NCBI RefSeq assembly: GCF_032854445.1
Contig: NC_088303.1
Location: 18,609,501 to 18,673,500, forward strand
From: Liolophura sinensis
Taxonomy: Eukaryota > Mollusca > Polyplacophora > Chitonida > Chitonidae
Direction: 5' to 3'
Length of the DNA stretch: 64,000 nt
Below the pieces are notes generated by a model. The model saw only the letters and a program-made list of their open reading frames with translations, did not search any database and was not told where the DNA came from. Each line of letters starts with the position of its first letter. The first letter of the stretch is position 1. Shown here piece after piece: positions 561-42,600 of the stretch. A program made the translations under genes and the position numbers.

Positions 561-3500
561 CTGACATTTGAGCTCATCAAAGGGCACCATTATGCCCTTT
601 TCCCAGTTATGAGTGACCTCCTGCGTCTTCTCATTGAGCATGCCCAGACTGTGGAGGGTGGGCACTCGTAAGGGGCGACCGCACTGGGCACATCGCTCGA
701 GCACCTTCAGGGAGGCTGCCTGCTGCTCCTTACACTGAAAAGTAGATACAGTTAGTGCATTTATTTGATTCTTATTCTATGCCACAATTAGAATCTTTCA
801 CATTTAGTGGTCAGTTTACAGCAGGAGGAAACCAGTGTTGCTGGGTAAAACCACCACCTTTTCACAAGTTACTGTTGAGCTTTCATAAGAGTGATGTACA
901 AAAATGTACATGTACATCTTATCAGTGGTCCTTCAGAAAAATTAGACTGTGACACATAGGCCTCAATGAGAAATCATTGTCATCAAAGCCCTGCTTAAAT
1001 TTCATGGTAGGCTTGATGGTCCATATTGATAATGCTGGGATGCCAGCAATCTTTTACTGAGCTTTTGTACTTTAATTTTATCCTAAAAAACAATTTTGGA
1101 TTGAATAGGTAATTTTGGATTTTATTTTCAATGGTCTTTCCACTGATGCTTACATATTTTGGGGGGAAATTCTTTAACTTTAACGGTAGCTATATTCACT
1201 TACAGCCTTCACGATTGCCTCATTAGCAGCCATGGCTGCAATGTTCTGTTCTACAACAGCTGGTCTGTAACACAAAACACAACATTTAAATTCTTGATCA
1301 CCACTGTACCTCAAATAAAATATCTGGGAAATGTGACACCGGTCACAAGAAATATAACAACTTGCAGGAAGCTCTAGATAAGATACCTGCATCAGTCTTG
1401 GCTTTTTACATAATTTGGCAAATGTTTCCACAAAACTAAGACAATTTCTTCCCAGTGTGTTGATGTATAAAATAATGGTCGTTGTTCCTCGTTGGATGAT
1501 GTAATTTTTTTTATAAATGAATCTCAGCAATAAAAATTAATTTCAAATTTAATATTATGCATTTATAAAAGTAGAAAAAAAAACAAGAAAACACAAAATC
1601 GTATAAACAAATTTGCAAACACTGACTTGCACTTGTACAGTTTTGCGAAGGATAAATACTTTCTGCACACGTTCTATAACTTTTGTACACCTCTAATCTC
1701 AACCTTACTTTGGCAAGATTTATCCCCCTTTAGTCCCTTTCACAATAATTTTAGTTGCAGCAACATAAACTGGAACATCATTCAGATAAATGTACTCTTA
1801 ACCGATCATAATTATTTTACTAATAGAGCGAATTCATTAAACAAAGCACATACCCTTGGAAAAAGCCAGTTTTGGCAACTTTTGCAGGAAAACTGTCTCT
1901 GACTATCGACTTCAGACTCCTGAAATACAAAACAATAACATCACTTTGAAATGAGCAAGCAGACAAGAATTTTCACATTTCATCTATTCTTAATTGATGA
2001 AAATCTTGAGCCTTACATACAGAACACGTCTATCTTCGATACTATGGGTCACTAATTCAGGCATAAAGGAACTCTGTGTCTCAATAAATTGCTTCATGTA
2101 CCTTTCTGTCATCAACAGAATGACACTTTATAAAATACTGATTACTCACATTATTAATGATTATCAATAAAACTAGAATGATATGACAAATCATACGTAT
2201 TACTTTATAGATTTTTAATTATAAACAGCTTGAAAATGTTCAAAACAAAACAAATGAAATGTTTCAAATAAAACAAGCAAAATGCTTCAAACAAAACAAA
2301 CGAAATATTTCAAACAGACCAAATGTTTCAAACAAAACTAACCAAACTGATAATGATGTGTAAAGGCATAACTCTGCAGTATCATGTATCAACATTGAAG
2401 GTTTATGACAATACAGCTACAATACAGCAAGGTTTAGCATAGCTTTTTACAAACCATCTGTGGTACAGCTGTATGGCAAACAGAGCTTCGTCCGACAGTC
2501 CATCTATTCCATCAACGGCAGACTTTTTCAGTTCATAGTCTCCACCCACGCAGATCCTCATCAGCTCAGACAGCAGTGACTGAACCAAAGGTAAAGGCAC
2601 TCTGCAAACCATCAAAACACAGCATAACATAGGCACACTTGTCAAATAAACACAAAAGAACTTCACTCATTCCTCAACTGTTTCGCATTTAAAAGAGTAT
2701 CTTTCACTGCGATTTATGTACATTTTTAATTTGACTTTTGAGACAAAACTACACTGGTTGGATTGGTCATTTTCAGAGCTTCACAAAAAGTATAATTTTA
2801 TCAGTCAACACAGGTTAATGCCTTCAGAGTATGCTTGCACAAATGCCTTCCAAGCATGTGCAAAAGTTGAGGAAATACAGCATATCATTAAGTACAAATA
2901 CCTATATCAAAATCTACATAAAATATTTAAACATTATAAATCTACAAAGTGTTTTATATCAGAAAAAGGTATATACATTTAACAATCTTGCCTGTATGTG
3001 ATTCAGGTACATGAGCATTGATTTTTGTACATGTAGCTGAAACAAAACCTAAACATTAATTGTCAAGAACCTTCAGAAAGCATGTTCCCATCAAGTACTC
3101 AATATGAAACCACCTATGTGTAAAGTCATCATACAGAAAACATATTAAAATGACACTCAAGCCCATCTGTTAATGTCTGTGTGTTTGTTATGCACATCCA
3201 AACATGCTGTTACATCTTACCCATTTTCTAAGTATGATAAATCCCATTTCAAGTAAGCAGCTACCTTCAGCGCCAAGATCCGTAACGCTTGGATCTTCTT
3301 GTTTTCTTTAACCTGCTGTTTATTATCAACTGTAAGCGAGAAAAAAAAAATTATGGCCACTATAACAACCATTTCTGACTTAAAAAAGATGTTCATTCCT
3401 GCAGAAACCAAGAACAGCCTATAAGTCAATGCCACTTAGGCAATGTTGTCGCTATACCAAGTTAAACATAACATGAACATAACATGAAGGCTGCAAAGTT

Positions 3501-5801
3501 TCCTGCATATTTTTCCAATATCTTTGAAGATTTTTGACTGAAACTTTGCACATGGGAATAGTGTTATTTAAGTTACAGCTTGTGTTGATTTAAGAATGAT
3601 TTCTGATTTTCTTAAGTGTTTTGCTGATTTTTTTTTTTTTTTTCATTTTCTTGGGAGGAGGGGGGAGGCATTTTTTTGGACATGCCAATTTTACTTATTT
3701 CACAGTTTTCCACACTTTTTATGTTATGTGTTAACGTATTTCATTGAAAATTGGTGTACATGTACTTCTTTATTATGATATTACACATAACGAATGTAAG
3801 TTGGGTGTGGATTTATTATTGTAAAGCTTTTGTCGAATTATACTGTAACAAAAACCGATGTAGTGTTTCCCTTGAGGATCATACTCTGGACAATTTTCTA
3901 TAACTGAAGTTGTAAGCATACATGTTCGTATGAATTTGTCACATGTTTTAGTTAGGGTAGAAAGTACAGTAACCTGTATTCTATCATTTGGAATGTTCCA
4001 TATTTTTCTCTTAAGGATGATCAGGAACTGATTCAAAACTGTGGACGTATTGTGCAAAATGTTGGTTTTCTTCTGTTTTGAATGACTTACACAAGCAATC
4101 AGTTTACTTTTCTATATGTGCATATATGGCATACTACATGTAGAGTGTATCAACCTGGCTGTAAGCACATAAACTAGTGAGTCATTCAATCCATGGTCCA
4201 GACAACCCAATGACCCCTGACCTATGTTGTGATCTCAGCAGTAAGGTGTCCCTATAGGCTAGTAAATGTATACATATATATTATACATGGCTACTTTGCC
4301 TTATCATAATATCCAAGCACAAGAAATGGCCATGCAGAGTTACAAAGAGCAGCTAATTCTAATCCTTCAATCTCTTAATCCCTCTTTCATACCTTTAATT
4401 AGGATAATCCCCTTACTGTAGATCACATGGATTATGAGCTTCAGCAAGCATTATTCAGTAGCCCACACAAAGACTGTCCCACAATATTCTCTTACAAGTT
4501 ATGCTGGGCTTTTTTGACTACCAAAAAGTGGCCCCAAAAAGTACAATGACAGCTGATACATATTAACTGGTACATGTAGCTGGATGATGACAGAGAAATG
4601 GAAAAAAATATCAACTTACATGCATATCTACATGTATCAAATACCAACCATCTTTGATTGCGATGAAAAGGCAGTCAATTATGATACTGTTATAATCAGC
4701 CATCTTTTATACTGACATTTGATCTTACCCAAACTCGCCTCTGGTTTCCAGTCTGAGAAACCATTATTTGGCTGCCCATTCCCCGAGTACAGGTTAGCCA
4801 CATGGACATCTGCTTGCTGAATGAATTGAACTATCAACTGTGAAGCTGTGGGATCTGAAAGTACAAAGTACAGCAGCAAATGCATGTAGTAAATAAATAG
4901 TAGAAATTAATGAGCAATCAGAAATAAAGTGATTAATATTGAAATATGTACACACACTTCCAAATGAGCTGGTCTCAATATATTTACAAGTCAAAATGTA
5001 AACTGATAAAACAGCAATGACCAAAATAACCAAGAATACAGCATTTTATTGAGTATAAAGTACTTTATTGAGAAATATGTGATTGCCAAGTTACTGTTTT
5101 TGTTTTCAGTTGCTAGTGGAAATCCATCATGCACTTGTCACCAGTTTGCTTTGAATACAGGCCTAGAAGTCACACACAGCCTGGATGAACAAGTGAAAAC
5201 TACAATTAAAATCAGAAGTTACGAATGACTTGATTTGTGGGAACATTGTTTTTGGTCGAACATCCCAACATCACATCTCAGGGTACTGGAATGCCATAGA
5301 GTCATGAGTCAGGAGAATGCACCAAACCATTATAGTTATAATACACTATACTGTATGTTGTGGCAACTAGCACCAGATGACTGCTGTGCTTGAAGGTCCT
5401 TCACCCAACTTTTTAACTTGAGGCTCAAGTTGTTCCTACCTTTTCTTCTCAACACGTTGTCACGTGAAGTTTGTCTGGATATTTCTATATAAAGGTTATC
5501 AGAAAACGCAGGGAAGTATCATTTACCAGACACCATAACAAATGCGTTGTATTTAATTATTCATTGGTGTTGCCGTGCCTCTTCCCATAACTAAAAATCA
5601 ACACTACTCTGCATGGGACAGGATAGCCTGGAAAATGGACTGTCGTCGTGCTACACTTCCCTGACAGTTTGTCAGCTTACCACTGGATTCGTCGGATAAG
5701 TGGTTTTCCAAAAGGTTTTCGTTCAGGAGAAATTCAAACCAAGAAACTGCAGGCATATGAGCAGGGCCGCTAGCATTCAGACGGGGGAAAGTCTCCGACA
5801 T
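561..5801 (-). CDS. INTS8: Integrator complex subunit 8, N-terminal part (7 coding exons, runs off left edge)
   Basis: INTS8 is a helical-repeat subunit of the nuclear Integrator complex, which cleaves nascent RNA at snRNA genes and paused Pol II genes. It helps tether the PP2A phosphatase module. Coding exons on the minus strand are 5681-5801, 4729-4854, 3221-3329, 2455-2601, 1854-1919, 1204-1264 and 561-734. All have AG/GT borders and the phases agree, giving 268 codons. Residues 21-24 are WFEF, followed by LLNENLLENHL, close to the human WFEFLLEESLLEKHL. Further matching blocks are QLIVQFIQQA, RILALKVAAYLKWDL, LYHRWSLKSIVRDSFP and, in the last exon, DELKCQ before the exon border. I chose the ATG at 5801 because it leaves a short leader before WFEF, as in human. 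Exon 4 ends at the GTTTGT donor because only that keeps the phase. The remaining exons lie left of base 1. Identification is from remembered family sequence. Confidence 0.95.
2230..2345. repeat. Degenerate short tandem repeat, about 20-25 bp unit
   Basis: Repeated CAAACAAAACAAACGAAAT-like units alternate with TGTTTCAAA in the INTS8 intron between exons 4 and 5. Units are diverged. No coding signal is seen in this intron. Confidence 0.7.
5681..5801 (-). other. INTS8: INTS8 coding exon 1 with the PP2A-docking WFEF motif
   Basis: This exon encodes 40 codons plus one base and ends in a GTAAGC donor. The WFEF motif at residues 21-24 is the N-terminal INTS8 element that published Integrator work links to PP2A recruitment (established knowledge). 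Its exact preservation suggests the phosphatase module is conserved here (inference). A second in-frame ATG at residue 16 could also serve as start without losing the motif. Confidence 0.9.
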
Positions 5802-6307
5802 GGTTGAGCATTCTTTCAGGTCCGATGTTCGTTGTCTTGGGACACTTTCAGCCTTTCCGCCGAGTGCGGCAACATACACCACAGTCACAGGCGCCTCTAA
5901 TACCACGAGCTGCGCATATCACTCAACACGGGCACGCGTGTCGCAGGGAAATTTAGCTCGTAAGAATAAGGTAACACTAAAGAGTTCCACTTCCGCTTGT
6001 GTTTATGGCAAATGGCCAGACGAAATGTCTGTGTGCATGTTACTTGTCAAAAGTATGGCAACTCTCATCAATGTCAGCTGTAAACTGCGAACCCGCAAGT
6101 AGTTTTGTAGCCCACAATGCCCGAGTGATGGCTGGACAGTTGTTATCGTTGCAAACTGTTCCGTGCAGTCAGTGTACATTTGGGTCTTAAAACATGTAGA
6201 TGTTCGATGTTGAAGTCGAAGTAAATGACTGCAAACAGTTTTCAGTTTTAGATAAGATCAGTCAAGTCTGTGCAGTGATGTGTTGTTAAGTGGACGAGAT
6301 TCACAGC
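5802..6307. promoter_or_regulatory. Shared divergent promoter region between INTS8 and morgue
   Basis: The start codons of INTS8 (5801, minus) and morgue (6308, plus) are 506 bp apart, head to head, and no repeat lies between. The stretch has more CpG than its AT-rich surroundings, especially 5800-5960. It contains CCACTTCCGC at 5987-5996, which on the other strand reads GCGGAAGTGG, an ETS/GABP-type site common in bidirectional promoters. CCCACAATGC near 6111-6120 loosely resembles a ZNF143/STAF element. No TATA box at a sensible position was recognised. Transcription start sites cannot be placed from sequence alone. Confidence 0.6.
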
Positions 6308-9300
6308 ATGGCTGCCATGAAGCCCGAAGCGTCCACTTCAGTGTCCTCATCGCGGATACTGACCAAAGCTGTTGTCAAGAGTAACAGGGATGACAAGAGT
6401 AGTGTGGATCTCACCGAATTTCTCTCCTCAGAGGTAGAAAACAGCACACACACTTTCTAACTTTCTGTAGGTTGCGCTGTATCAGCATCAATTCATAATC
6501 TCATAAATAAACCCATCTCATATATAGGCCTAAGTAATGTTAAAATCTGACTCCATACAAGCAGTGGAGTAGTGAGAGTTATTGTGGTTATGGTGAAAAA
6601 GGCCCAAAATGTGTCAGATATACCATAAGAAACATCCGCTGTTTACACATGTATTAAAACTTCCCTAGCATGAAATGGTATCAACTGAGTGGTCTCAGTA
6701 ATTAACTAACCTCTTTCTTACCATATTAACTCTCACAGTAGCATTGCCCACTGTGCAGCTAGCTTGTTTATTGTATGGCTCCTTTTTCAAAAGATATTCT
6801 ATAGTTTTTCTGTATAACAGCTGCAAAAGGTTGCCATTAGATGGAAAACCATTTCAGGTAGAATAGGCCTACCCTACAGATCTGTCCTGCTACAGGTTTT
6901 GCACCACTTCTGACTAAATTAACTGTTTTTGTTAAATCTTGTTTCCATTTTAAGTACGAGAGCTGCATGATGTGTCAGGGATTTTACGGGCGTAGTTTTG
7001 GTCAACCAGTCTGCAGCACTTGTCACATCTTTCTTTTCATCACTGACATCAACAAAGATGAGGAAGGTGAAGGTGGAGAGGAATATAAAGAGGTAAACAT
7101 ACATCAAAGGAAATTTTTCCGTGAGGGTTAAATGCCATACATATTGACTCAGATATAAAGAGGTTGAATATATAGAAGTAACCCGTGTGGCATGAATCAT
7201 CATGCTGAATTATCTTAATTCACTTTTCACCAAAGCCATCTTAATGGTATTCACACTTGACTATGTGTTCTAGTTGATAGCCGTATTGACAGTGGACAAT
7301 TGAAGAAAAGTAATCAGGTGTCAGTCAGAATGAATTTTAAAGGTATTAAATTTAGTTCTTATACAAATGGAAAATTGCGTTGTGACAAAATTTTGCACCG
7401 GCGGTGTGAGGCTAAAGTGAACAAAAGAGAAATGACAGGAAGTTATGCAGAAAGGTCTTCCAGCAACCTAAAGATGGTTGTGGGTTTCTCCCTGTCTCTG
7501 CCCGGTTTCCTCCAACCATAATGCTTGCTGTTGTCGTACAAGTTAAATATTTTGAGTAAGGCATAAAACACCATTCAAATAAATAAATCCTAAGCTCAAA
7601 GAATGAGTGAGTGCTTGGAGTTTAACTTCGCACTTAACAATTTTTCAATCATATGACGACGATATTCCTTGTTGCAGGACAGATTTCCACTACTCTTTTA
7701 TCTAATGCTGCTTCTCTGGAGTGCCTCACCGAAGGCAAGTAAGCTGACCCGCCCGAGCCATTAGACTGATACGGGTCGTTGCACTATCCCCTCTCATGCT
7801 GAACGCCAAGCAAGGAAGTTACAACTTCCTCTTTTAAGGTCTTAGGTGTGACTCAACCCAGGATTGACCCTGGTTCTACCGCTCCTGTAGCAGATGCTCT
7901 ACCAACTGTGCTATCAGGGTTTAAGCTCAAACCGGTTTAAGCTCAAAGAGAATTTTGGGAGCTACCACTGAGTAAATGACATCAGTAGAGGAATAGTTTA
8001 GAATTTATAATTTCATGGTTGAAGAAAACTCAACCCTATGTGAGAATCTGGCCAAACATCTGAATCTGAATATTATCTCTTCCATCCATCCATGGTCGCC
8101 GTACATTGATCATCGCTACAGCTTACATGTACAGCTGTCAGTGGCCTTTTACCGTATTTTTGAACGTGGCTCAGTTGGTTAGCGTGCTAGCTCAGTGTAA
8201 TGACCCAGGAGCCTATCACCAATGTGGTTGCTACGAGCAAGTCCAGCTCATCCTGACCTCCTCTCCGACCGTACTTGGGGAGGTCTGCCAGCAGCCTGCA
8301 AATGGTTGTGGGGTTCTGCGGGCTCTGCCAGGTTTCTTCCCACCATAATGCTAGCTGTAAAATACCAATCAAATAAATAAAATGTATTTTTGAAAGATCC
8401 TTCCCCTTTACACATAGAATGTGCTTGAATTCCAACAAAATCATGTACCTCCAGGTCTGGGTTAGCAGAAAGCTGTTTCTGACCACTCAGGTACACGCCA
8501 GTAGGAGATCCAGATCATTGATCCTATGTGAAGGATGTATTGGAAGGATTGAAGCACACAGTACTGTTGAATTTACAATGTAATATTTCATGTACCTTCA
8601 GATTTGAGTTTGTGTTTACAGAAAGCTGATTCTGACGACTCGGGTAATGAGGAGCCTGACATGGCTGCAGATTTCTACATGAAGCCTGAGAGTCGCTCCA
8701 AGGTCCTTCGTTCCGGCTCTCACAAGATGGACAAGCTGGCAGAAAGGATAAGCTCCCTGACCATTCCCAGAGACACGGAAAAAGAAGCAGTACCCGAGGG
8801 TCTGGTGGACTCGCTACCCCCTGAAGGTATAGATGTATATGATATTCACACATGCACAGTACTAATCAAGCTTAGAGGGACATACCGCCAAAAGAAATTC
8901 AGAATATTGGCCTCCCAATATTTGCTGAAAAATGTCAGTTATGAGAATTATAAGGGGAAATCCACTGTCAGCCCGATGAGATAACACGCCAATGAGGCAG
9001 CGCCAAGATTCTTACAATGCAGCGTTCGCTCGTAGATCGCACATGTAATTAATATGATAGAGTGAAAGCTAATTATAAGTGTAGTAAACCAAATACGAAA
9101 TAACTTCATATCTGGCTTGATTAAAACAAAACATTGTCTTGGTCATTTTATAGCAACTGTTCTCTGCGTGCATCAAACAGCGATTACTTTGCGACTACCC
9201 AAGCATTTTTAGTGCGATCATATTTTTAGTGCGCGCATACAAGCTGTGATTACACTGCATGTATTTTCATGGTCCTTTGTTGTCTGAATGTCTAGACTAT

Positions 9301-12300
9301 GTAGTATGAGATTCACTAGAGTCCATCAGCGATTGTATAATGTAAGGAGGTCCATTCTTGTATGTGTATGGCATCTTTATAAAGGATGATAGCAACGAAA
9401 ACGCTCAGAGCATGACAAAATACTTACCAGACACAGTAATAATCTAAATATGTATGATCACTGGGTGGTCTCTGTGTGTTTGAAAATTATAAACAAATAC
9501 ACGTAAGCCAAATCGGGCCTATGATTTCAAGTTTCTGAAAACCAAGATTATCTGAGCTTTTTTCAGTTTCTTCCATGGATGAATGAAGACTGGGATTAAC
9601 TTGCGGGATGTGTGCTGAATTTTTATCCCCAGTGTGAAAGTTGAAGCCATTCTCATGCATAATCCAGCAACAGTTGTGTACGTTGTTATAATTGGTCAAT
9701 ACAAACAAACCAATTTTTATTGGTCAATACAAACAAACCAATTATAATTGGTCAATGCAAACAAACCAATCATTATGAAATTGCACGCAAGAAATGCGCA
9801 AGGGTTTTTTTTTTTGTTGTAACCTTTATGGGCGGATGAGAAGGGTGGGTTTGCTTAAAGAACAGGAAAGAGCTACACGTGTATATGTATATAAGATAGC
9901 TGAGCTTCCTATACATATATCTGCCATCTGCACTCATTGCCTGTCATTGCATCACATCAAATAACCGAACTGTGTGTCAAATTTGACTCATGCCCTTTAT
10001 TTTCTTCTTTACAGCATCACATACATGCTGGTAATAGCATTGTTCTGGGAATGTGGGCTGCACTCTAATTATACTCTGTACATGTGCATGTATGTACATA
10101 GAACTTTTCTGCAGGTGTCTGGGTTAAATCGCTTTGGTGACCTAATGGTTAGAACATCCGTCTCAAAGCTGGAAGACCTTGGATCAAACCCAGGTCTAGT
10201 CATACCAAAGACTTTAAAAATGGTACTTGTTGATCCTTTGCTCGGTGCTCAGCACTTACAGCTCAGGGCCAGGAAACAGGATTGAGTTGGGAGACATGAG
10301 ACATGACCATGCCCTTCCATAAGTAGAGATAGTGAGTCAGTGTTTGGGGTTTAACATCGTACTTAACAATTTTTCAGTCATATGACGACGAAGGAATCCC
10401 TAGAGTGGATGTAATGTGCCTCCTTGTTGCAGGACGGATTTCCATTGCTCTTTTATCTAGTGCTGCTTCACTGAGACTACTTACCGAAGACAAGTAAGCC
10501 GCCCTGCCCGAGCCATTATACTGATACAGGTCAACCAGTTGTTGCACTTCATGCTGAAAGCCAAGCGAGGAAGTTACAACTTCCCCTGTAAAGGTCTTAG
10601 GTGTGACTCGACCCAGGATTGACCCTGGATCTACTGCTCTCAAAGCGAATGCCATAAGAAGACAAAGTAAAGTACACACACCTAATGACTCCTCGTCATC
10701 ACATTTTTCACTTGAAATTTAACAAGTGACGTATGAAACATACAAACCTACTCCACCCAAAACCTGAATTGCTGCAGAACTGAAGGAGTTAGATTCTTGA
10801 TTAGGATGTTAAACACCAACCAAATAAATACATGATGTGTCTGTTGTAGTGCTACTGGTAGTGTTCAATTACCTGGATGATATCTCACTATGGACAGCTG
10901 GAAATGTCTGCCAAAGATGGAGGCAGATCTTGGAAGGGGAGACAACTGAGGATCAGTGGAAACACTTCATCTGTCTTAGATGGCCCCTTTTCCGACCTCA
11001 GTACAGAGTCAGATGCTGGAGGACTGTCTATGCTAAACTGTAAGTCATGATGATCAAGCACGCATTCATGGGGTATTTGATTGTATTGTTGAGAAAATGG
11101 ACTGAAATTCACAATTTGTTGTAGTAATGCTATTTTCTGTCGTCTACCCTTCAAATGGCAGATTACCACTCTGCTTGTAAGTTGTAACGTATGAAAAGAC
11201 ATTTAGAGAGCTGTCAGTTAGTAAATTAATTAGGGTGAGCAAGTTTCTATGTCATATGTTGGAAAGTTTGTCAAAAAGTAGTTGGTTTAAGCCTAAGTAC
11301 TCCGGTTTGTTCCAACCATGAAACTGACTACCATTCTACAAGTAATATGTTCTTGAGTACAGCTTTAAGCAACAATCAAATAAGTAAATATGTTAACAGA
11401 AAGCTCATCATGAAAGTAAATATAAATCATAATTGAAGCTAGTATTATTTGTAGTTTTGTAGCTCAGATTCTGAAGGCTCTTTCTCATAGTGTGAGATAT
11501 TGTTGAAAGAAAAGACAGCACTAAATCAAATGTGTATATACAGTATCCCACATACATGTATCCCAGCAGTCCAATTTTTATTTTTGTGATCTTCTTGTGT
11601 CATAGAAATATGGAAGCGTACATTATATTAAGTGAAATCAAGCACATTGAGAAAAACGAAAGTGCTGCCATATTATGAATTTTAACCAATCTGCCACTTG
11701 TTACTTCTATAACCCAAGATCACAGCTGTTCCCTCTGATGTCAGCTGAACCCTGTTTTAGATGTTAACCACATGAGCATGTGGTATGACTGATGCAGCAT
11801 TGTGTTAACCGTTTCTCAAACATGGTGTATCCCAAGTTTCGGGAAATCATTGTTTTTATTAATCATATTTTATGGTGTCAGAGTCTTCATATGATCCTTC
11901 TCTGTTGCAGACTTGAGAGCTCCCCGTGTAGGTACTGTTTGGAGAGCATGATGTTACAGGTAAAGAAGCATTACAGAGGCTCACTGCTACTTGTATTTAT
12001 CCCATAAACGTGACTGAGAACATGTAATAAAGGGGTGGGATAGATACTATATAGCCTCTTTCATGGACAGTGTGGAGAGCTACTTGATAGGCTCACACCG
12101 ATTCATTGCTAAAAATCAGTCAAACAAAAACTGGACACGTGCCAGACTACTTTCGTTTACTGTGTGACGTTGTCGTCTGCATTGTCATTGAGTGCAAGCA
12201 TCAGCAGATATGTTGACTCATATCATAGATACACGTACTGTGGGAAAATACTTTGGGAAAATACTTTATCCATTTCAATTCTTGTATATATTAAAGTGGT

Positions 12301-13461
12301 AAACATTTTTATCAGCTGCACATATTGACTTGCATGCTATGCACTCGTGTCGTTGGGGCTGATTTTCCCTTTGACTCCCCGCGGTCATCCTTTGTCTGAT
12401 GAACATTGTCGTAAACTCTTTGCAAAATATTAACGACTACTTAGTGTTACTTATATTAATGATAATGTCAGAATTCCAGTCAAACTTGTGTCACTAAATG
12501 AAAATCTGGTGTTCTGTGTAGGGTATATTTTATCCTATAATATCGTTATAATTTGTTTAGCAGCGTGGGAATGATGCATATCTTTAACTTTTTGCGTATC
12601 ATGTTATAAAGAGCACACCCCCTATAGAGGAGAACTCCTGGCGACATCGAAGACTGAGGAGTGAACTTAAGACTCTGCGGACTGACCCCCCAGAGGGCAT
12701 CCAAGCCACGCCCCTTGACAGGCACTGCTGCCACTGGCAGGCATCAATCACTGGCCCTCAGGGAAGCCCTTACCAAGGAGGACTCTTCTTACTTTACCTG
12801 CAGATTCCAGAGAGGTACGTGTAACATCAGAAAAATTCATGTTTCTCTTTGTTTTAATAATGTATGGAATGTGTTATCTTTTTGTTTATTTGAGTAATGT
12901 TTTACTCTGGAATAAATTAGTACTTAGGGACATAGCGACCATCAAGGAAACTGGACAGGTATGGTCAAAAGGTACCCTCCTGGTAGACGTTCTGAGGCCA
13001 TTGGGATTTCTGACTAGTTGTTTGATGCTATAACTTGCATTTTGAAGTAACGTTTAGCTCTTGTTCACTGTAATATTTTCATCAAAGATATTCTGTAGGA
13101 ATATAAAGTTTAGGTATTATTATTAATATTATTTTTCATTTCTGATTTTAGTTATCCTATGAGGCCTCCCAAAGTGAGATTCATCACAAAAATCTTCCAC
13201 CCCAATATCAGTCGTCACGGTGATGTAGGGCTGGACTCCATTCACCATAACTGGAGCTTGGCATTAACGATATCCAAAGTTCTGATCAGCATACAGTCTC
13301 TGTTAACGGACCCCTACTGTAAAGTGTGCATGGAGCCCTCAATAGGCCAGCTTTTCACAAAACACCGTGCAGAGTTTGACAGGATTGCGCGCTTGTGGAC
13401 ATGGAAGTATGCCATGCATGACTATCTACCACCTTGTGATATTAACCTCACCTGGCTCTAG
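6308..13461 (+). CDS. morgue: Morgue-like protein: zinc finger, F-box and E2 (UBC) domain without the catalytic cysteine (7 exons, complete)
   Basis: Coding exons are 6308-6433, 6955-7092, 8622-8826, 10850-11039, 11911-11959, about 12612-12814 and 13152-13461, all with GT-AG introns and matching phases. They give about 406 residues. Domain order: a C-x2-C-x12-C-x2-C zinc finger at residues 46-65; an F-box from about 150 (SLPPEVLLVVFNYLDD, then QRWRQIL); a UBC domain from about 245 to the C-terminus. The UBC fold is clear from SPYQGGLFLL, YPMRPPKVRFITKIFHPNI, NWSLALTISKVL and SLLTDP. Where active E2s have Cys in ICLDIL this protein has VGLDSI, so Gly replaces Cys at about residue 330. Drosophila Morgue has the same three domains and the same substitution; there it binds DIAP1 and promotes cell death. 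Exon 6 may instead start at 12630 (in phase, six residues shorter). The likely role is substrate receptor of an SCF-type ligase. Confidence 0.93.
6955..7092 (+). other. morgue: morgue exon 2: N-terminal four-cysteine zinc finger and acidic stretch
   Basis: This 46-codon exon is phase 0 at both ends. It carries CMMC, then VCSTCH, giving four spaced cysteines, with a neighbouring histidine as a possible alternative ligand. A DEEGEGGEE acidic segment follows. The finger matches the N-terminal zinc finger of fly Morgue in position, ahead of the F-box, but its ligand is unknown to me. Confidence 0.85.
7454..7589 (+). repeat. SINE family A, 3' portion (morgue intron 2)
   Basis: This stretch runs from GGTCTTCCAGCAACC through GCCCGGTTTCCTCCAACCATAA to a GGCATAAAACACC and AAATAAATAAA tail. 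The tRNA-like head is missing, as expected of 5' truncation. The same tail occurs more than ten times in the window. Confidence 0.85.
7604..7918 (-). repeat. SINE family B, near full length, tRNA-like head at the 7918 end
   Basis: On the minus strand it starts with a tRNA-like head (TAGCACAGTTGGTAGAGC as box A; GGTCAATCCTGGGTTGAGTC around box B), then GTCTTAGGTGTG and a body with CTCGGGCGGG. It ends in CCAAGCACTCACTC at 7604. Related copies lie at 10332-10654 and 55309-55635, so this is a second dispersed family. Confidence 0.85.
8163..8383 (+). repeat. SINE family A, near full-length copy (morgue intron 2)
   Basis: The head GTTGGTTAGCGTGCTAGC resembles a tRNA box A, and CGAGCAAGTCCAGCTC sits where box B would be. 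CTCCTCTCCGACCGTAC, the CCACCATAATGCTAGC segment and an AATAAATAAA tail follow. This is the clearest head-to-tail copy in the window. It sits about 240 bp upstream of morgue exon 3. Confidence 0.88.
8469..8490 (+). pseudogene. Decayed duplicate of the start of morgue exon 3 (pseudo-exon)
   Basis: About 150 bp upstream of exon 3 the intron carries a diverged copy of its acceptor and first codons. AAAGCTGTTTCTGACCACTC follows a TTAGCAG acceptor-like site and is followed by CAG/GTACAC. The true exon begins AAAGCTGATTCTGACGACTC at 8622. Similarity extends upstream: CATGTACCTCCAG near 8442 compares with CATGTACCTTCAG near 8589. It looks like a local tandem duplication of the intron-exon junction that has since drifted. 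Confidence 0.5.
9684..9774. repeat. Three tandem 32-33 bp units with paired CCAAT/ATTGG motifs
   Basis: Units of ATTGGTCAATACAAACAAACCAAT repeat about three times in morgue intron 3. Junctions form palindromes such as CCAATTATAATTGG. Apart from its effect on local secondary structure I can assign no role. Confidence 0.8.
10130..10310 (+). repeat. Third tRNA-derived SINE type (family C)
   Basis: CCTAATGGTTAGAACATCCG fits a tRNA box A region and GGATCAAACCCAGGTC fits box B at normal tRNA spacing. A non-tRNA body (TGCTCGGTGCTCAGCAC, then GGGCCAGGAAACAGG) follows. Only one copy was noticed here, so family status rests on the tRNA-like head. Confidence 0.65.
10332..10654 (-). repeat. SINE family B copy (morgue intron 3), head degraded
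   Basis: It shares GTTTAACATCGTACTTAAC, TCATATGACGACGAAGGA, TGTTGCAGGACGGATTTCC and CAGGATTGACCCTGG with the copies at 7604-7918 and 55309-55635. The tRNA-like head end is rearranged near 10640. A short family A tail fragment lies at 10801-10831, just before exon 4. Confidence 0.85.
11302..11390 (+). repeat. Diverged SINE family A tail (morgue intron 4)
   Basis: CCGGTTTGTTCCAACCATGA, TTCTTGAGTACAGC and CAATCAAATAAGTAAATA follow the family A tail order but are clearly diverged. Confidence 0.55.
13152..13461 (+). other. morgue: morgue last coding exon: E2 core with HPN motif and Cys-to-Gly change
   Basis: The exon completes a serine codon split across the intron and ends in TAG at 13459-13461. 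It holds the HPN motif (FHPNIS) of E2 enzymes and the tryptophan and LTISKVL region downstream. The position normally holding the thioester cysteine, seven residues after the N of HPN-I, lies in GDVGLDSI and is Gly. RIARLWTWKYAM matches the C-terminal helix of UBE2D-type E2s (RIAREWTQKYAM). Confidence 0.92.
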
Positions 13462-22269: not shown

Positions 22270-25200
22270 CCTAAATCTTTCTAGATCCGACGCTTTACAG
22301 ACCCAACAGGCTTGATTATACCCTTAGCTAATCATCCCCAGATCCAACACTTTATCTACCCAATAGCTTTGATTGTACCTTTACCTAATCCTCTCCAGAT
22401 CCCATACTTTGCAGACCGAATGGCCTTGATTGTACCTTTACATAATCTTCCCCAGATCCGTCACTTTAAAGACCCAATAGTCCTGATTGTACCTTTACCT
22501 AATCTTCCCAGATCCGTCACTTTAAAGATCCAATAGTCCTGATTGTACCTTTACCTAATCCTCCGAAGATCCGTCATTTAAAAGACCCAATAGTCCTGAT
22601 TGTACCTTTACCTAATCTTCCCCAGATCCGTCACTTTAAAGATCCAATAATCCTGATTGTACCTTTACCTAATCTTCCCAGATCCGTCACTTTACAGACC
22701 GAATAGCCTTGATTATATCTTTACCTAATCCTCCGAAAATTCGTCACTTTAAGAACCCAATAGTCCCTGATTGTACCTTTACCTAATCTTCCCCAGATCC
22801 GTCACTTTATAGACCGAACAGCCTTGATTGTACCTTTACCTAGTCCTCCGAAGATCCTTCACTTTAAAAACCCAATAGTCCTGATTGTTCCTTTACCTAA
22901 TCCTCCCCAGATCCGACGCTTTACAGGCCCTGTAGCTATGACTGTATCTTTACCTAATTTTTCCCAGATCTGACACTTTATAGACCTATTAGTCCTGATT
23001 GTACTGCCCAGATCCGACACTTTACCAATCCCAATCCTGCCCAGATCCCAAGCTTTACATATCCTGTAGCTTTGACTGCACCTTTACCTAATCTTCCCCA
23101 GATCCGTCACTTTAAAGTTCCAATAGCCCTGATTGTACCTTTACCTAATCTTCCCAGATCCGTCACTTTATAGACCGAATAGCCTTGATTGTACCTTTAC
23201 CTAATCCTCCGAAGATCCGTCACTTTAAAAACCCAATAGTCCTGATTGTACCTTTACCTAATCTTCCCCAGATCCGTCACTTTAAAGACCCAATAGTTCT
23301 GATTGTTCCTTTACCTAATCTTCCCCAGATCCGTCACTTTAAAGATCCAATAGTCCTGATTGTACCTTTACCTAATCTTCCCAGATCTGTCACTTTATAG
23401 ACCGAATAGCCTTGATTGTACCTTTACCTAGTCCTCCGAAGATCCGTCACTTTAAAAACCCAATAGTCCTGATTGTACCTTTACCTAATCTTCCCAGATC
23501 CGTCACTTTATAGACCGAATAGCCTTGATTGTACCTTTACCTAGTCCTCCGAAGATCCGTCACTTTAAAAACCCAATAGTCCTGATTGTACCTTTACCTA
23601 ATCTTCCCCAGATCCGTCACTTTAAAGACCCAATAGTTCTGATTGTTCCTTTACCTAATCTTCCCCAGATCCGTCACTTTAAAGATCCAATAGTCCTGAT
23701 TGTACCTTTACCTAATCTTCCCAGATCTGTCACTTTATAGACCGAATAGCCTTGATTGTACCTTTACCTAGTCCTCCGAAGATCCGTCACTTTAAAAACC
23801 CAATAGTCCTGATTGTACCTTTACCTAATCTTCCCAGATCCGTCACTTTATAGACCGAATAGCCTTGATTGTACCTTTACCTAGTCCTCCGAAGATCCGT
23901 CACTTTAAAAACCCAATAGTCCTGATTGTAACTTTACCTAATCTTCCCAGATCCGTCACTTTATAGACCGAATAGCCTTGATTGTACCTTTACCTAGTCC
24001 TCCGAAGATCCTTCACTTTAAAAACCCAATAGTCCTGATTGTACCTTTACCTAATCTTCCCAGATCCGTCACTTTATAGACCGAATAGCCTTGATTGTAC
24101 CTTTACCTAGTCCTCCGAAGATCCGTCACTTTAAAAACCCAATAATCCTGATTGTACCTTTACCTAATCTTCCCAGATCCGTCACTTTAAAAACCCAGTA
24201 GTCCTGATTGTACCTTTATCTAATCTTCCCCAGATCCGTCACTTTAAAGACCCAATAGTTCTGATTGTGCCTTTACCTAGTCCTCCGAAGATCCGTCACT
24301 TTATAGACCGAATAGCCTTGATTGTACCTTTACCTAGTCCTCCGAAGATCCGTCACTTTAAAAACCCAATAGTCCTGATTGTACCTTTACCTAATCTTCC
24401 GCTGATCCGTCACTTTAAAGATCCAATAGTCCTGATTGTACCTTTGCCTAATCTTCCCAGATCCGTCACTTTATAGACCGAATAGCCTTGATTGTACCTT
24501 TACCTAGTCCTCCGAAGATCCGTCACTTTAAAAACCCAATAGTCCTGATTGTACCTTTACCTAATCTTCCCAGATCCGTCACTTTATAGACCGAATAGCC
24601 TTGATTGTACCTTTACCTAGTCCTCCGAAGATCCGTCACTTTAAAAAGCCCAATAATCCTGATTGTACCTTTACCTAATCTTCCCAGATCCGTCACTTTA
24701 AAAACCCAATAGTCCTGATTGTACCTTTACCTAATCTTCCCAGATCCGTCACTTTATAGACCGAATAGCCTTGATTGTACCTTTACCTAGTCCTCCGAAG
24801 ATCCGTCACTTTAAAAACCCAATAATCCTGATTGTACCTTTACCTAATCTTCCCCTGATCCGTGACTTTAAAGATCCAATAGTCCTGATTGTACCTTTGC
24901 CTAATCTTCCCAGATCCGTCACTTTAAAGACCCAATAGTCCTGATTGTACCTTTACCAAATCCTCTCCAGATCCGACACTTTAAAGACGGAATGGCCTTG
25001 ATTGTACCTTTACCTAATCATCAGAAGATCCGACACTTTTTAGACCAAATAGCCTTGATTGTACCTTTACCTAATCTTCCCCAGATCCGTCACTTTAAAA
25101 ACCCAGTAGTCCTGATTGTACCTTTACATAATCTTCCCCAGATCCGTCACTTTAAAACCCAATAGTCCTGATTGTGCCTTTACCTAATCTTCCCAGATCC

Positions 25201-26245
25201 GTCACTTTATAGACCGAATAGCCTTGATTGTACCTTTACCTAGTCCTCCGAAGATCCGTCACTTTAAAAACCCAATAGTCCTGATTGTACCTTTACCTAA
25301 TCTTCCCCTGATCCGTCACTTTAAAGATCCAATAGTCCTGATTGTACCTTTGCCTAATCTTCCCAGATCCGTCACTTTAAAGACCCAATAGTCCTGATTG
25401 TACCTTTACCAAATCCTCTCCAGATCCGACACTTTAAAGACGGAATGGCCTTGATTGTACCTTTACCTAATCATTAGAAGATCCGACACTTTTTAGACCA
25501 AATAGCCTTGATTGTACCTTTACCTAATCTTCCCCAGATCCGTCACTTTAAAAACCCAGTAGTCCTGATTGTACCTTTACATAATCTTCCCCAGATCCGT
25601 CACTTTAAAGACCCAATAGTCCTGATTGTACCTTTACCTAATCCTCCCCAGATCTGACACTTTATAGACCGATTAGTCCTGATTGTACCTTTACCTAATC
25701 CTCCCCAGATCCGACGCTTTACAGACCCTGTAGCTATGACTGTATCTTTACCTAATTCTTCCCAGATCTGACACTTTATAGACCTATTAGTCCTGATTGT
25801 ACTGCCCAGATCCGACACTTTACCAATCCCAATCCTGCTCAGATCCCACGCTTTACATATCCTGTAGCTTTGATTGTACCTTTACTTAATCTTTCCCAGA
25901 TCCGTCACTTTAAAGATCCAATAGTCCTGATTGTTCCGTTACCTAATCCTCCCCAGATCCGACGCTTTACAGACCCCGTAGCTATGACTGTACCTTTACC
26001 TAATTCTTCTCAGATCTGACACTTTATAGACTTATTAGTCCTGATTGCACCTTTACCCAATTCTGCCCAGATCCGACGCATTACAGATCCTGTAGCTTTG
26101 ACTGTACGTTTACCTAATCCTACCCAGGTCCGTCACTTTACAGACCCAATAGCATTGATTGTACCTTTACGCTGTGTTCCAATCCATCTCATATCCGTCA
26201 CTTAACAGATCCAGTAGTCTTAATTGTACTTTTACCCTGCATCTG
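22270..26245. repeat. 4-kb minisatellite of 57-bp units, about 70 copies, with higher-order repeats
   Basis: The unit contains AGATCCGTCACTTTAAAGAC, CCAATAGTCCTGATTGTACC and TTTACCTAATCTTCCCC. Two main variants (CCAATAGTCCTG with TTCCCC, and CGAATAGCCTTG with CCTCCGAAG) often alternate as a dimer of about 113 bp. Longer blocks recur: 23185-23400 again at 23525-23740 (offset about 340), 24952-25130 again near 25404-25580 (offset about 450), and 22905-23060 again near 25700-25860. Because 57 is a multiple of 3, open frames of a 19-residue peptide repeat appear; I regard them as non-coding. Confidence 0.95.
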
Positions 26246-36600: not shown

Positions 36601-39600
36601 AAAGCAATACTACAACAAGTACGCCACTGTGAGGCACACAGTTCACGTGTGTAACGCATGTGGGCTCGTGATGCTTAGTCTCACCACTGGTGTCCTTGCG
36701 CGGACCTACAATAGCAAGCATCAATAAAACTGTGCATCAATAATTAATAGAAAGAGTAGTTGAGAATAAGATTTTGTATTTTCTAACATCACACTCTGTG
36801 TCATCTGGCGTCGTTCAAGATTTCTGTACAAACTTTGCTAGTGGTGGCTGTGATGTAAATTGCACATTACACGCTTCATTCTTTGCCATGTGCTGTGAGG
36901 AGTATGACCATACAGTTGCTGATTGCAGCTATAAATGTACCTACCTGAACATGAACTCTGTGATCGCTCGAGTTTCTTCGCCGCTGTCTGCTTTCACGGA
37001 AAGAAACGTGAGCTCTTTGACCCTCTTTCCTGTGTTCGGAATATCCAGGTCGTCTGATGTGTCGTCGCTGAAAATGTCACTATTGTCGTTAATTAAATTC
37101 CATACCCTGACAGCGTTATCACTGGAGGCGGACACGACTGTCTTCAAGTCACGCGAGATGATATCAGTCACTTTGCATGGATGAACAAGTCTGTCTTTTA
37201 GTTTACCACTGACTAGATTCACACAGGTTAGCATGGAGCCGTTTGGGAAATATAATATTCTACCATCGGCTGTGAAGTTGAACTTTTGGAAAAGATCCGT
37301 GTTTCGTCCTGAAACAATAAACACATGCATGTTTCAAAGTACTTTGGGAGATTAAACCCTTTGAGCTTATTCACAAGGTGATACTAGGAATGAGTGAATT
37401 TGTGCATTGTTTGTTTCAAGTATATGCGTGAAATGCCTATGACTGTAAAAGCTTAGTGTTTCGAAGTTGAGTACAAGGCGAGGCATGCATTCTCTTGTGA
37501 GTTTAGGTAAGACCATGGGATTGGAGCTATCATTACTGTGCTCGACTTTGCTTTGTTAAAAGGTTAAAGTGGCTTGAAACTACAAGGGTTACTAACCTAC
37601 ACCATGTACACACCAGTACATTAAACGTCTGCTTTGTGAGACTGGCTTTATTTTACATCGGGAGTTCAATTTAGAAGCGATTCGTTTTAGTTAATTAATA
37701 GCTTTATTCTCTGGTACTGATATGCAAATATTGGCTTTGGTGAGCCTGACCTCTTTAATATTACTCCAAGGACGAAGTTAAGATAAGGCAATGCTAAAAT
37801 GACTTGACCATTCTCCTAATTTTTGGGAGTGTTAATTAATTAAAAAAATTAAATAAAGTAGGTAAAGTAAGTAAATTAAATAAATTAAGTCACTAACACC
37901 TCGGCGAGGCTGATCCCCCCCGCCCACCTCCACTCACCCCCGATGACCCTGAGTGTGTTCAATGACACCAGGTCACAGATATAGATGTCATTCTCCATGG
38001 AACTCGAGAAAACAATGGTGGCCTGATCAGGGGATATGGCCAAGGCGTATATACAGACATTTTCGTGGTCTGTGGGATCCATCGGATCCAGCATGTCCCG
38101 GTTATGGAGAAACTCCCCGGATACAATGTCAGCCACCCGTAAGACTGGAGATCCGTATGTTGCGAGGGCAACCAAATGACCCTGGGCTGAAAATGAAGAG
38201 AGCTGATTTCAATCTACAGAAGGAAATAAAATACGGTTAAACTAATGTTTTAGAATCTTGGTGCATATTTTGTCCAGATCTTTTGTAAACATACCACATC
38301 AGTGCACAAAAATCAATGCAACTGTAGAGACATCAAACATTTCAATGCAGTGCTGCTATAGTCACGTGGTAGAAGATATGACGTCAATTCGCTGATTCGG
38401 ACTTTCTTATGAAGAACAGGTCAACGACAAACAAAGGCAGCATGCACCATAACTGACTTTCATTGGAACAGCGTGGCTTGTACTCTGCAAGGCCTAGATT
38501 GCTCTCCTTTGAGACTTGTGTTTGCACTTTCTTACAGGATGATGCTGGCAATTTTCTGGACTTGAATAACACATTAACAGAAGTACTGGTTGATTAAGCA
38601 TCCCCGAGCTCTGGTCCCTATTTTCGCGTTGCTGTTTACACAATGTGATGACAACACAGAGTACTTCTAGATAAGTGACTCTAATAATTGCAAGTAACAT
38701 CAATGCATTTGTTTTACCAAATTCTGCTTACCCCATTGTGCAAGGGACATGGTGATTTGCTACGCTACCTAAGCATTTACTTGAACAGATAGAATAAACC
38801 TTTAACTGAAGGGAATTGACAAGAATCTGTATTTCAGCGGTTAGTGATCCGGTCGCTGTTTTGGTTTTACTCTCCATGCTGTGTCTTTGATATTATTAAC
38901 ATTCCCAGATTTACCGACTGCATCACTCAATTAGCTAAATCTCACTTGGCCTGCAGTATAAATCTAAGAACGTGAAAATGAAAACAGATTTCACTGCAAA
39001 ACACAAGCAAAATTGTTACAACTGCAAAAGGTTTCATTTCAAAGTCATTTGTCTTCTTTTTGGCTTCCAACATTGCGACGAACTGTCAAATTTCCGACAA
39101 GAAATGCATAGCAGAATTTATGTTTTACCCATGCAATGCTGCATTTCATCGGATAGGATGGATTGCAGAATATCTGAAGTACCTCAAAGCATACAATTTG
39201 TTGCCCAGCCATGCTTTATTGCTAGAAAAATAATATCCCTTAGGAAAATGGAAATGATCACATTTATAGGGAAGGCTTTACACAGTTCAAATACAAAGCT
39301 GACTACCTGATATTGGGTCAAAGCACTGAAATTTCTCATCGCCCATAACTTGATTGTCAATCTGTAGGATTTTCTCCCCAGTCTCGGCCAGAAATACGTG
39401 GAGGGACTGGTCACATGGTACAACCAGTTTGTCTCGCAGATACCCGCAAGCCACGAAATTCTCCTGAGAGGTGTTTCCGTAGTTGTCCACGATGAAGAGC
39501 ACCTGTCCCGTGTTAATGTGCAGCCCCAGGATGCTCAAGTCGCTGTTCACGGCGACGACCCTGTCCCCCGAGCAGATGAACAGATGTTCCGGAAAATGTA

Positions 39601-42600
39601 CAACCTCCTCCGCCAACATGTGGAGAGTACCCTTATTTGCATCCCATACGCGAACTGATTCGTCATGAGATGCTGAGAACAACAACACGGATAATGGTTT
39701 GACAATGATTTGACTGACCGATTTTGATTGGTGTTTACGTTCTCACATATTTGTCATTATAAACAAAGGCTGTCATTGTAGATGGGGAGTAAAACACATG
39801 CTCCTTACGATCTTTCCCATGTGCGTGATGCACTTTTTGTGCTCAATCTGTATACAATGTTGGTGGAATGAAAATGAACTGTAACGGACTTTCTGTTAGA
39901 CCAACATCCTTATTAGCAATCTCAACCCCGCGGTGCCACAAAGGCCCCCAAATAGGATTTGGAAGAATATTGGCGATTTGAAGGCTCGATTACTATAACG
40001 CCATACTAAAGAAGTTAACTTTATAAGATAGCGTTCGTTTTCATGGTTGGAGGAAATACTGGTCAACGACTTATCAGACTTGTCAACGGGTCGCCAATCG
40101 CCTGCTGTCACCGAGGCCCCATAAGAAGAGAGAGCTGGAGAATCTAAAATTTCCCTCTTCAAAAAAAAAAAAAACAAAAAAAAAAACAAAAAAAAACCGG
40201 GATTGAACCCCTAACCTCCCTTGAATACTGTCCAACCCATTGGAAGACAACCATCTTCAAAACTTTTCCACGTGACCACCCGTGCTTTAAAAATAAATGA
40301 ACATATACATGCCCATACTAGTATTTATTTGTTTGCTTGGTGTTCTAGGTCGTACTTAAGAATATTTCACTTATGCGACGGCGGCCAGCATTATGATGGG
40401 AAGAAACTCACAACTACTAGCAATTAGCTGGAAGACCTTCCGACGTACGATATTGGTATTAGTTACGCCAAATTTTGTTTTATGACACAAAGGAGTTGTT
40501 ATCTCCAAGACATTTTTTTTACGAATGTTAATGGGCCTCTCCGGAGTTATCGATTTAATCAAGCCTATACTTACCCGTAGCCACGTAGCGTCCGTCTGAC
40601 GTCATGTCTAAACATGTCACTAACTGGGTGTGGCCAGCTAGACAATGCACTAGCTGACCACCGGGAGGAATGAGAATTTTCTTGTCTGGCATCAGGTATT
40701 TCACAGGAAGGTCACTCGGTTCACCTAAAATGATCTAATATGGTCAAATGCTTATATATATGTCATCTGTAGAGTAAAATAGAACTGCACGTATTTTTTT
40801 TTACTTTAGCTTAGTTTTACGCTGTACGCTCAAGAATATTTTACTTATACGACTGCGGCCAGCATTATGATGGGAACAAAACGGAGGACTTGAACTCACA
40901 GCGACTACATTGTTCAGTGTGTTACGCTTGAGCGCTAACCACCTCGTCAGAACTGCATGCACTATTGATCAAATCGTGAACGGTTAATGGTTACATCTGA
41001 AGTGTTTTGATTCATTTTTAGTGTATGTTCCTCATGATATGCTAGTTAATATGCTTATATTTGTCATTAGATGTTAATAGTGGAGAGAATATGAAATGAT
41101 GCACACTTCACACGAAAGGATGAAAAAAGTTATACGTATGGTTTTCAATTTTTATCTTCTCGATTTTTCTTAAAAGTGAAAAGGACATCAGAAGCTAACA
41201 TTTGTATGCTGATATTTAGGACTACATTTTGGCATAATCGATATCCAATACATTTATGCATGAATATGCTCTGAGGAAGGATGCGATGCAAGTCTAAATA
41301 TTTATTGTTGCTCAAAAGTGGTCTTTTCCCCTAACAGATATGTTTAACCAGAATTAATTAATATTTTAATACAATCAGAAACATTTTCGCGATAAAGATT
41401 TAAAGGATGGGTGTGGGTATCAATAATAAATGTACACTTATAAACTAAATAAACTTATTTCGACTTGAGCTATGCACTTTTCATAGCGTTCCATATGTTC
41501 TTTAAGTCATTTTCTTCCTCCTTTTTATTAATTGCCTTTGTTGTAACACGACCAATGTGCCAAATTTAAACAATAATTTAAAAGCAACAGTATTTTAACA
41601 CTAACGCCGTCCATGTGGAACATAAAGTATATTTCACAGGGTATCTGGAATATGCATATATCTACTTCAGGGATATGTTAGAGGAAATGAATGCTTTCGA
41701 ATGAGAAAAATAGATGATCCTGGTTTTAATTCCCCATCAATAAAACGTATGTGAAATTAAAGGAAACCCACATATCAACAGTGTACTGGTATTTCTTAGC
41801 GTCCAAATTGTGTGCCACTTTTGACAGATCTGCACTTGATGGCGCATGAATACGAGAATATCATGTATAAGCTATTAGAGACTGATCTTTATTAAGCTGG
41901 ATCCTTCTTATTAACCAGACGGTATATTGATGATCCGCTGACTTTAAATAGCCCTAATATACATGTAGCAAACGCTCTCAGAGAAACAGATCCACGCTTT
42001 TTTGTTTTAAAAGGGTCTAGAGACTGTCCAGATGGTGCATCTTACTTAGACCTGTATCTGTGCTAATACGACACCAGTTTCTTGTCACACAGCCTGTAGG
42101 ACAAGCGGGATGGTTACAATTTACTCATTGGTAATCATAATTACTTAGATAGAGTGTAATATACCAGACGATATTCCATATGGCTTGCACATATTTCGCC
42201 TTCTGGCGATCGTTAGATCTTATGTGTGATGTTATTGCAAAACTGGCGAGTCGCCCAAAATTCTTAATTTTTGTGGCATAATCCCTTATTAGTAAATATG
42301 GACGGGATGTCTAGAATCTCCATGTATAGAATAAAATTGTCACAATAGATATACATAAGGATATAGTCGAACAGCGAGTCAGATACGTGTGTTTCATTGG
42401 CGAAAACTTACAAACTAGCATAGAACATGATTCTGGATCCTGAGTAAGTCTACACGTCTAAAGGAATTCTAGCGATATTCAAGCAGCATTAAAACCGTTG
42501 ATTGCTTCCCAGGCGTCCTATTTGTTTATTTCTTTATTTGATGGTTGATACCACAAATCCTCGCTCTATGTATTATCTTAGTTTTTGATGGTTTCTCTGT

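What the first reader, a model, noticed from the sequence alone, without database searches (positions are those of the whole stretch)
13192..13236. E2-like domain of the Morgue homologue has Gly in place of the catalytic Cys
Seen: the HPN motif and flanks of a UBE2D-type E2 are intact, but the thioester cysteine position reads VGLDSI. Known: Drosophila Morgue has the same zinc finger, F-box and UBC order with the same Cys-to-Gly change. Inference: the substitution is ancestral to the family and kept by selection. The domain probably binds ubiquitin, an E2 or an E3 rather than carrying ubiquitin. The protein could join SCF substrate selection to non-catalytic E2 surface chemistry outside arthropods.
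Basis: partly seen in the sequence, partly recalled or inferred. Interest (0 to 1): 0.75.

Follow-up and report, generated by a model that had tools for sequence, protein, structure and literature searches.

The report
Invertebrate Morgue gene with non-catalytic E2
This is an ordinary copy, in an unidentified invertebrate, of the already described animal gene Morgue, whose ubiquitin-enzyme-like domain has a glycine where working enzymes have their catalytic cysteine.

Summary
Codon 13228-13230 (GGG) is Gly at the thioester-cysteine column of a UBC domain (Pfam UQ_con, E 2.4e-41; nearest solved relative UBE2D2, 72 of 144 residues identical). I rebuilt a seven-exon gene (6308-13461, +; 406 aa; six introns, all GT-AG with consistent phases). 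It carries the published sequence hallmarks of Morgue: N-terminal CX2CX12CX2C finger, F-box with five Trp, C-terminal UBC with Gly (PMC3787007, Introduction). No second Morgue was found in this genome. Of 28 own-genome UBC exons read at the active-site column, only this one has Gly (25 Cys, 2 Ser, recount). The Gly variant and its presence outside arthropods, Lophotrochozoa included, are already in print. The Drosophila protein binds SkpA and K48 polyubiquitin; Gly421 to Ala, Cys or Ser left its main overexpression effects in place. New but small: more of the active site than the Cys has changed (D117V, P95L); the UBC intron coincides with a UBE2T intron; microRNA markers suggest a lophotrochozoan but not clearly a mollusc. 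Verdict: new member of a known kind, low interest.

The parts
6308..6433 (+). exon 1, aa 1-42, proposed start Met
   Evidence: ATG at 6308, donor GTAGAA, phase 0; the start itself is inferred
6955..7092 (+). exon 2, aa 43-88, CX2CX12CX2C zinc finger (starts at aa 46)
   Evidence: motif; no Pfam match at E up to 10
8622..8826 (+). exon 3, aa 89-157, acidic linker and start of the F-box (LPPE)
   Evidence: phase 0 in, 1 out
10850..11039 (+). exon 4, aa 157-220, F-box with five Trp
   Evidence: Pfam F-box-like E 1.9e-9, F-box 6.6e-7, aa 151-184
11911..11959 (+). exon 5, aa 220-236, short exon with one CxxC pair
   Evidence: phases fit (2 in, 0 out); 49 nt, inferred, no transcript
12612..12814 (+). 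exon 6, aa 237-304, N-terminal half of the UBC domain
13152..13461 (+). exon 7, aa 304-406 and stop, C-terminal half of the UBC domain
13228..13230 (+). GGG, Gly330 at the catalytic-cysteine column (UBE2D2 Cys85)
12815..13151 (+). the only intron inside the UBC domain, phase 2, directly before the Tyr of YPMRPPKV; same codon and phase as a UBE2T intron of this genome

Best explanation
The gene is the orthologue of Morgue, an F-box protein with a ubiquitin E2-variant (UEV) domain. Shown here: a coherent gene model, the three-domain order, Gly at the Cys column, and no second copy found in this genome. Shown by others in Drosophila: association with SkpA and with K48 polyubiquitin, with both the N-terminal half and the UEV half contributing to the latter. 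Inferred for this protein: the F-box docks on Skp1-Cul1, and the finger and the dead E2 fold act as a non-covalent ubiquitin reader. The UBC domain has no cysteine to carry a ubiquitin thioester at its active site. Identity as Morgue about 0.95; this mechanism about 0.45.
For: Domains in order. Match to the three published signatures: CX2CX12CX2C, five Trp in the F-box, Gly. UBE2D-type chains head the list of solved relatives (best 60 of 313 shown). Asn77 of HPN is kept; PMC3787007 calls Asn77 critical for ubiquitin interaction. No second copy. Cys is lost together with Asp117 and with Pro95 of the E3-binding loop (roles of these two residues recalled). Fly biochemistry: SkpA and K48 polyubiquitin.
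Against: No transcript confirms that the exons are joined. In flies the F-box matters little for the overexpression effects: the abstract says its loss did not alter them, while a Results passage reports some reduction of lethality; SCF action may not be the main role. Ser22 of the E2 backside ubiquitin site is Gln here (role recalled), so ubiquitin binding may need another surface. My two structure models were of low confidence and say nothing. No other Morgue sequence was on hand to align.
Confidence: 0.8

Rival explanations
1. The UBC domain acts as a decoy or scaffold: it occupies an E3 or pairs with an active E2, as MMS2 pairs with UBC13, and so inhibits or redirects ubiquitin transfer rather than reading ubiquitin.
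For: 94-112 is well kept, and of nine E3-face positions looked at Arg5, Ser94, Ala96 and Lys101 are unchanged (roles recalled). PMC3787007 mentions UEVs that act with, or may negatively regulate, active E2s.
Against: The other five of the nine differ, among them Pro95 to Leu and Phe62 to Met. The fly pull-down identified SkpA and a ubiquitin multimer, with no E2 or RING protein named in the parts I read.
Confidence: 0.3
2. The F-box and UBC exons belong to two neighbouring genes and the fusion is a prediction error.
For: No RNA evidence was available; exon 5 is 49 nt and placed only by splice sites and phase.
Against: Seven exons on one strand with GT-AG sites and consistent phases give one open 406-aa frame. 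The order equals the published Morgue order. At E up to 1 no other place in this 609-Mb genome matched the finger exon or the linker exon (a search that scores only the best candidates).
Confidence: 0.03
3. The Gly is a decayed allele or assembly error in a gene that normally has Cys.
For: None found.
Against: Two base changes separate GGG from a Cys codon, the frame is otherwise open, and Gly is the published family state.
Confidence: 0.01

Closest known systems
Drosophila Morgue (F-box/UEV protein; PMC3787007)
   Same: Domain order, CX2CX12CX2C finger, five F-box Trp, Gly at the active-site column
   Different: This genome is probably a lophotrochozoan, to judge from two microRNA markers. 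The fly sequence was not on hand, so identity was not measured.
UBE2D (UbcH5) ubiquitin-conjugating enzymes
   Same: Head the list of solved relatives; 72 of 144 residues identical without gaps to chain 6ttu_D; HPN kept
   Different: Cys85, Asp117 and Pro95 replaced; fused to a finger and an F-box; lacks the introns seen in own-genome UBE2D genes at PPK|V and ISK|
UEV proteins (MMS2/UBE2V, TSG101)
   Same: E2-like domain without catalytic Cys
   Different: The best 60 of 313 solved matches are E2 enzymes, mostly UBE2D, none labelled as a UEV. PMC3787007 says no other UEV has Gly there.
UBE2T
   Same: An intron at the same codon and phase inside the UBC domain
   Different: 55 of 143 residues identical to own-genome UBE2T, fewer than to UBE2D; catalytic Cys present

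Membership tests
Morgue | N-terminal C4 finger CX2CX12CX2C | tested here: met
   motif search on the joined protein, aa 46; definition from PMC3787007
Morgue | central F-box with typically five conserved Trp | tested here: met
   Pfam F-box-like E 1.9e-9; five W counted in the F-box region; whether they are the same five columns was not checked
Morgue | C-terminal UBC domain with Gly in place of Cys | tested here: met
   UQ_con aa 250-386, E 2.4e-41; Gly330
Morgue | the three domains in one transcript | not testable with these tools
   splice sites and phases agree; no RNA data
Morgue | binds Skp1 and K48 polyubiquitin | not testable with these tools
   shown for the fly protein only
Catalytic UBE2D E2 | active-site Cys | tested here: not met
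   C85G
Catalytic UBE2D E2 | Asn77 of HPN and Asp117 of the active-site gate (roles recalled) | tested here: not met
   N77 kept, D117V
UEV | E2-like domain lacking the catalytic Cys | tested here: met
   by sequence only; structure models uninformative

The most novel reading that the evidence does not exclude
The non-catalytic UBC module of Morgue entered the gene from a UBE2T-type gene, or from an E2 ancestor that carried the UBE2T intron. It then kept or converged on UBE2D-like surfaces while losing the catalytic set (Cys85, Asp117), so that Morgue is a purpose-built ubiquitin reader and not a UBE2D with one swapped residue.
Probability: 0.15. Interest if true: 0.4.

Novelty: new member of a known kind. 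Interest (0 to 1): 0.15.

Why it matters
It adds a clean seven-exon gene model for a little-studied fusion of an F-box protein with a dead E2. It also shows that in this animal the change goes beyond Cys to Gly. If the fly protein shares the loss of Asp117 (not checked), that would be one possible reason why putting Cys back into it had little effect. For the wider field it is confirmation rather than discovery.

Tried and rejected
Structure: the UBC domain lies on two exons and is not one contiguous reading of the window, so I did not hand in the joined domain. I folded exon 2 and exon 7 alone: mean pLDDT 59.3 and 39.0. Both were set aside and no fold search was run.

Finger: no Pfam match at E up to 10 for three query pieces, two of them the finger. 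The solved-structure search gave 15 weak hits (best E 0.076, a lectin; a dedicator-of-cytokinesis protein 0.72; GATA-type fingers 0.77-1.6; retinoic acid receptor 1.9-3.5). No relationship is claimed.

UBE2T origin of the UBC module: the shared intron suggests it, but identity is 55 of 143 for UBE2T against 67-68 of 140-141 for three own-genome UBE2D genes, and UBE2N also has more (56 of 137). The tree of 13 own-genome E2 sequences left MORGUE on a long branch; no inner branch reached the tool's support mark (0 of 10). Left open.

Literature: the 2009 survey of Morgue across animals (PMC2766937) is not held. I know it from how PMC3787007 cites it and from recall of its abstract. In the rows listed by the other searches (one search showed 20 of 67 papers, one search showed 10 of 32) I saw no later work on Morgue in lophotrochozoans. 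Of PMC2789323 (fly circadian screen) I saw passages only; it reports that morgue overexpression disturbs light responses of the clock.

Species: not identified. miR-1992 (searched with up to 1 mismatch) and miR-1994 (up to 2) are present exactly; miR-1990 (up to 1), miR-1984 and miR-1985 (up to 2) gave no match. PMC7328434 (passages) calls miR-1984 exclusive to molluscs in one place but lists it among miRNAs conserved in metazoans in another, and its miR-1990-3p is matched to an annelid sequence. So the absences are weak evidence against a mollusc.

Corrections made on checking: the automatic count (23 Cys, 3 Ser, 1 Gly in 28 rows) mis-assigned one row (L027) and missed one (L016); both show Cys.

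Full report
What is there. The region 6308-13461 on the + strand holds a seven-exon gene. I chose exon borders by reading frame and GT-AG sites; the joined frame is 1221 nt, 406 aa and a stop, with phases that agree at all six introns. Pfam finds an F-box (F-box-like E 1.9e-9, aa 151-184) and a ubiquitin-conjugating domain (UQ_con E 2.4e-41, aa 250-386). A CX2CX12CX2C motif lies at aa 46 and the F-box region has five Trp. The codon at 13228-13230 is GGG, Gly330.

The active-site column. The best solved relatives are UBE2D2 chains. Over 144 ungapped residues of chain 6ttu_D 72 are identical, and Gly330 falls on Cys85. As a control I looked at own-genome UBC exons. One search lists 57 exon matches, two of them the exons of this gene. 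I fetched 36 others; by their profile ranges the 19 left out end before the active-site column or begin after it. Nine of the 36 do not reach the column (L010, L019, L023, L025, L029, L031, L034, L035, L036), so with the window exon 28 were read. 25 have Cys, one has Gly (this gene) and two have Ser: a UBE2D-like exon at C1:9737481-9737585 and a UEV-like exon at C9:13420346-13420549 (label recalled). The script mis-assigned one row and missed one; both show Cys, and the count above is corrected. Most E2 names are my recall; UBE2T was checked.

More than the Cys is changed. Asn77 of HPN, Leu86, Asp87, Ser94, Ala96 and Lys101 are kept, but Asp117 is Val, Pro118 is Cys, Pro95 is Leu, Phe62 is Met and Ser22 is Gln. 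The roles of these residues, apart from Asn77, are recalled. Identity is 15 of 19 in 94-112 but 3 of 18 in 113-130. So the stretch that holds Asp117 has diverged while the one before it has not.

Comparison with what is known. Of PMC3787007 I read the abstract and outline, Introduction, the Gly421 and in vitro binding sections, the Discussion, passages, and the first part of the reference list. It states that Morgue has a finger with an essentially invariant CX2CX12CX2C, an F-box with typically five conserved Trp, and a UEV domain with Gly for Cys; that all but one examined species share this organization; that it occurs in Lophotrochozoa, Platyzoa and Ecdysozoa; and that no other UEV has Gly. 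This gene fits each sequence point. The paper also reports association with SkpA and K48 polyubiquitin, and that G421A, G421C and G421S keep lethality and cell-death enhancement on overexpression; it adds that this differs from effects in the eye and may not reflect native roles. Its account of the F-box is mixed: no effect of its loss in the abstract, some reduction of lethality in a Results passage. The older survey it cites was not held.

Copy number and surroundings. The full protein gives 48 matches in the 609-Mb assembly: seven are its own exons, 37 fall on the UBC part and four are weak ones (E 0.06-0.79) on or around the F-box part; none is a second Morgue (which scores only the best candidates). 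Upstream, on the - strand, lies the start of Integrator complex subunit 8 (exons joined by eye match 7cun_H, E 1.2e-20; Pfam alone gave nothing above cut-off); the two genes are head to head.

Which animal. miR-1992 and miR-1994 mature sequences are present exactly; that they mark lophotrochozoans is recalled. miR-1984 and miR-1985 were not found with up to 2 mismatches, nor miR-1990 with up to 1. PMC7328434 (passages) calls miR-1984 exclusive to molluscs but elsewhere lists it as conserved in metazoans.

Origin of the UBC module. Its single internal intron falls in phase 2 directly before the Tyr of YPMRPPKV. The own-genome UBE2T gene has an intron at the same codon and phase. Own-genome UBE2D genes instead have introns at PPK|V and ISK|. 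Sequence does not follow the intron: identity is higher to UBE2D than to UBE2T, and the tree has no supported place for Morgue. The shared intron is an open lead.

Mechanism. Most likely an SCF-linked, non-catalytic ubiquitin reader. Skp1 docking and K48-chain binding are shown for the fly protein only; for this protein they are inferred. Pseudo-E2 pairing or E3 decoy action remains possible.

Verdict. New member of a known kind.

Noticed in passing
L038 (G000:C1:9735001-9741500), match C1:9737481-9737585 (-): A UBE2D-like exon on the same contig stretch as other UBE2D genes reads VVSLGILKDRWSPAISIS, with Ser at the catalytic-Cys column and splice-like borders; an upstream exon was found, the last exon was not. 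A second non-Cys E2 in this genome, or a decaying copy.
   Followed up: partly
window 2403-5918 (-): Start of an Integrator complex subunit 8 gene, head to head with the Morgue gene.
   Followed up: partly
window 22283-26170: Large tandem array of a 57-base unit, about 3.9 kb.
   Followed up: no
window 51449-52292: 24-base tandem repeat that is open in frames of both strands and gives long low-complexity ORFs.
   Followed up: no
window 36941-37333 and 39287-39742 (-): Weak WD40-like stretches on the - strand, below the Pfam cut-off.
   Followed up: no
window 12815-13151 and L039: Intron at the same codon and phase in the Morgue UBC domain and in UBE2T.
   Followed up: partly
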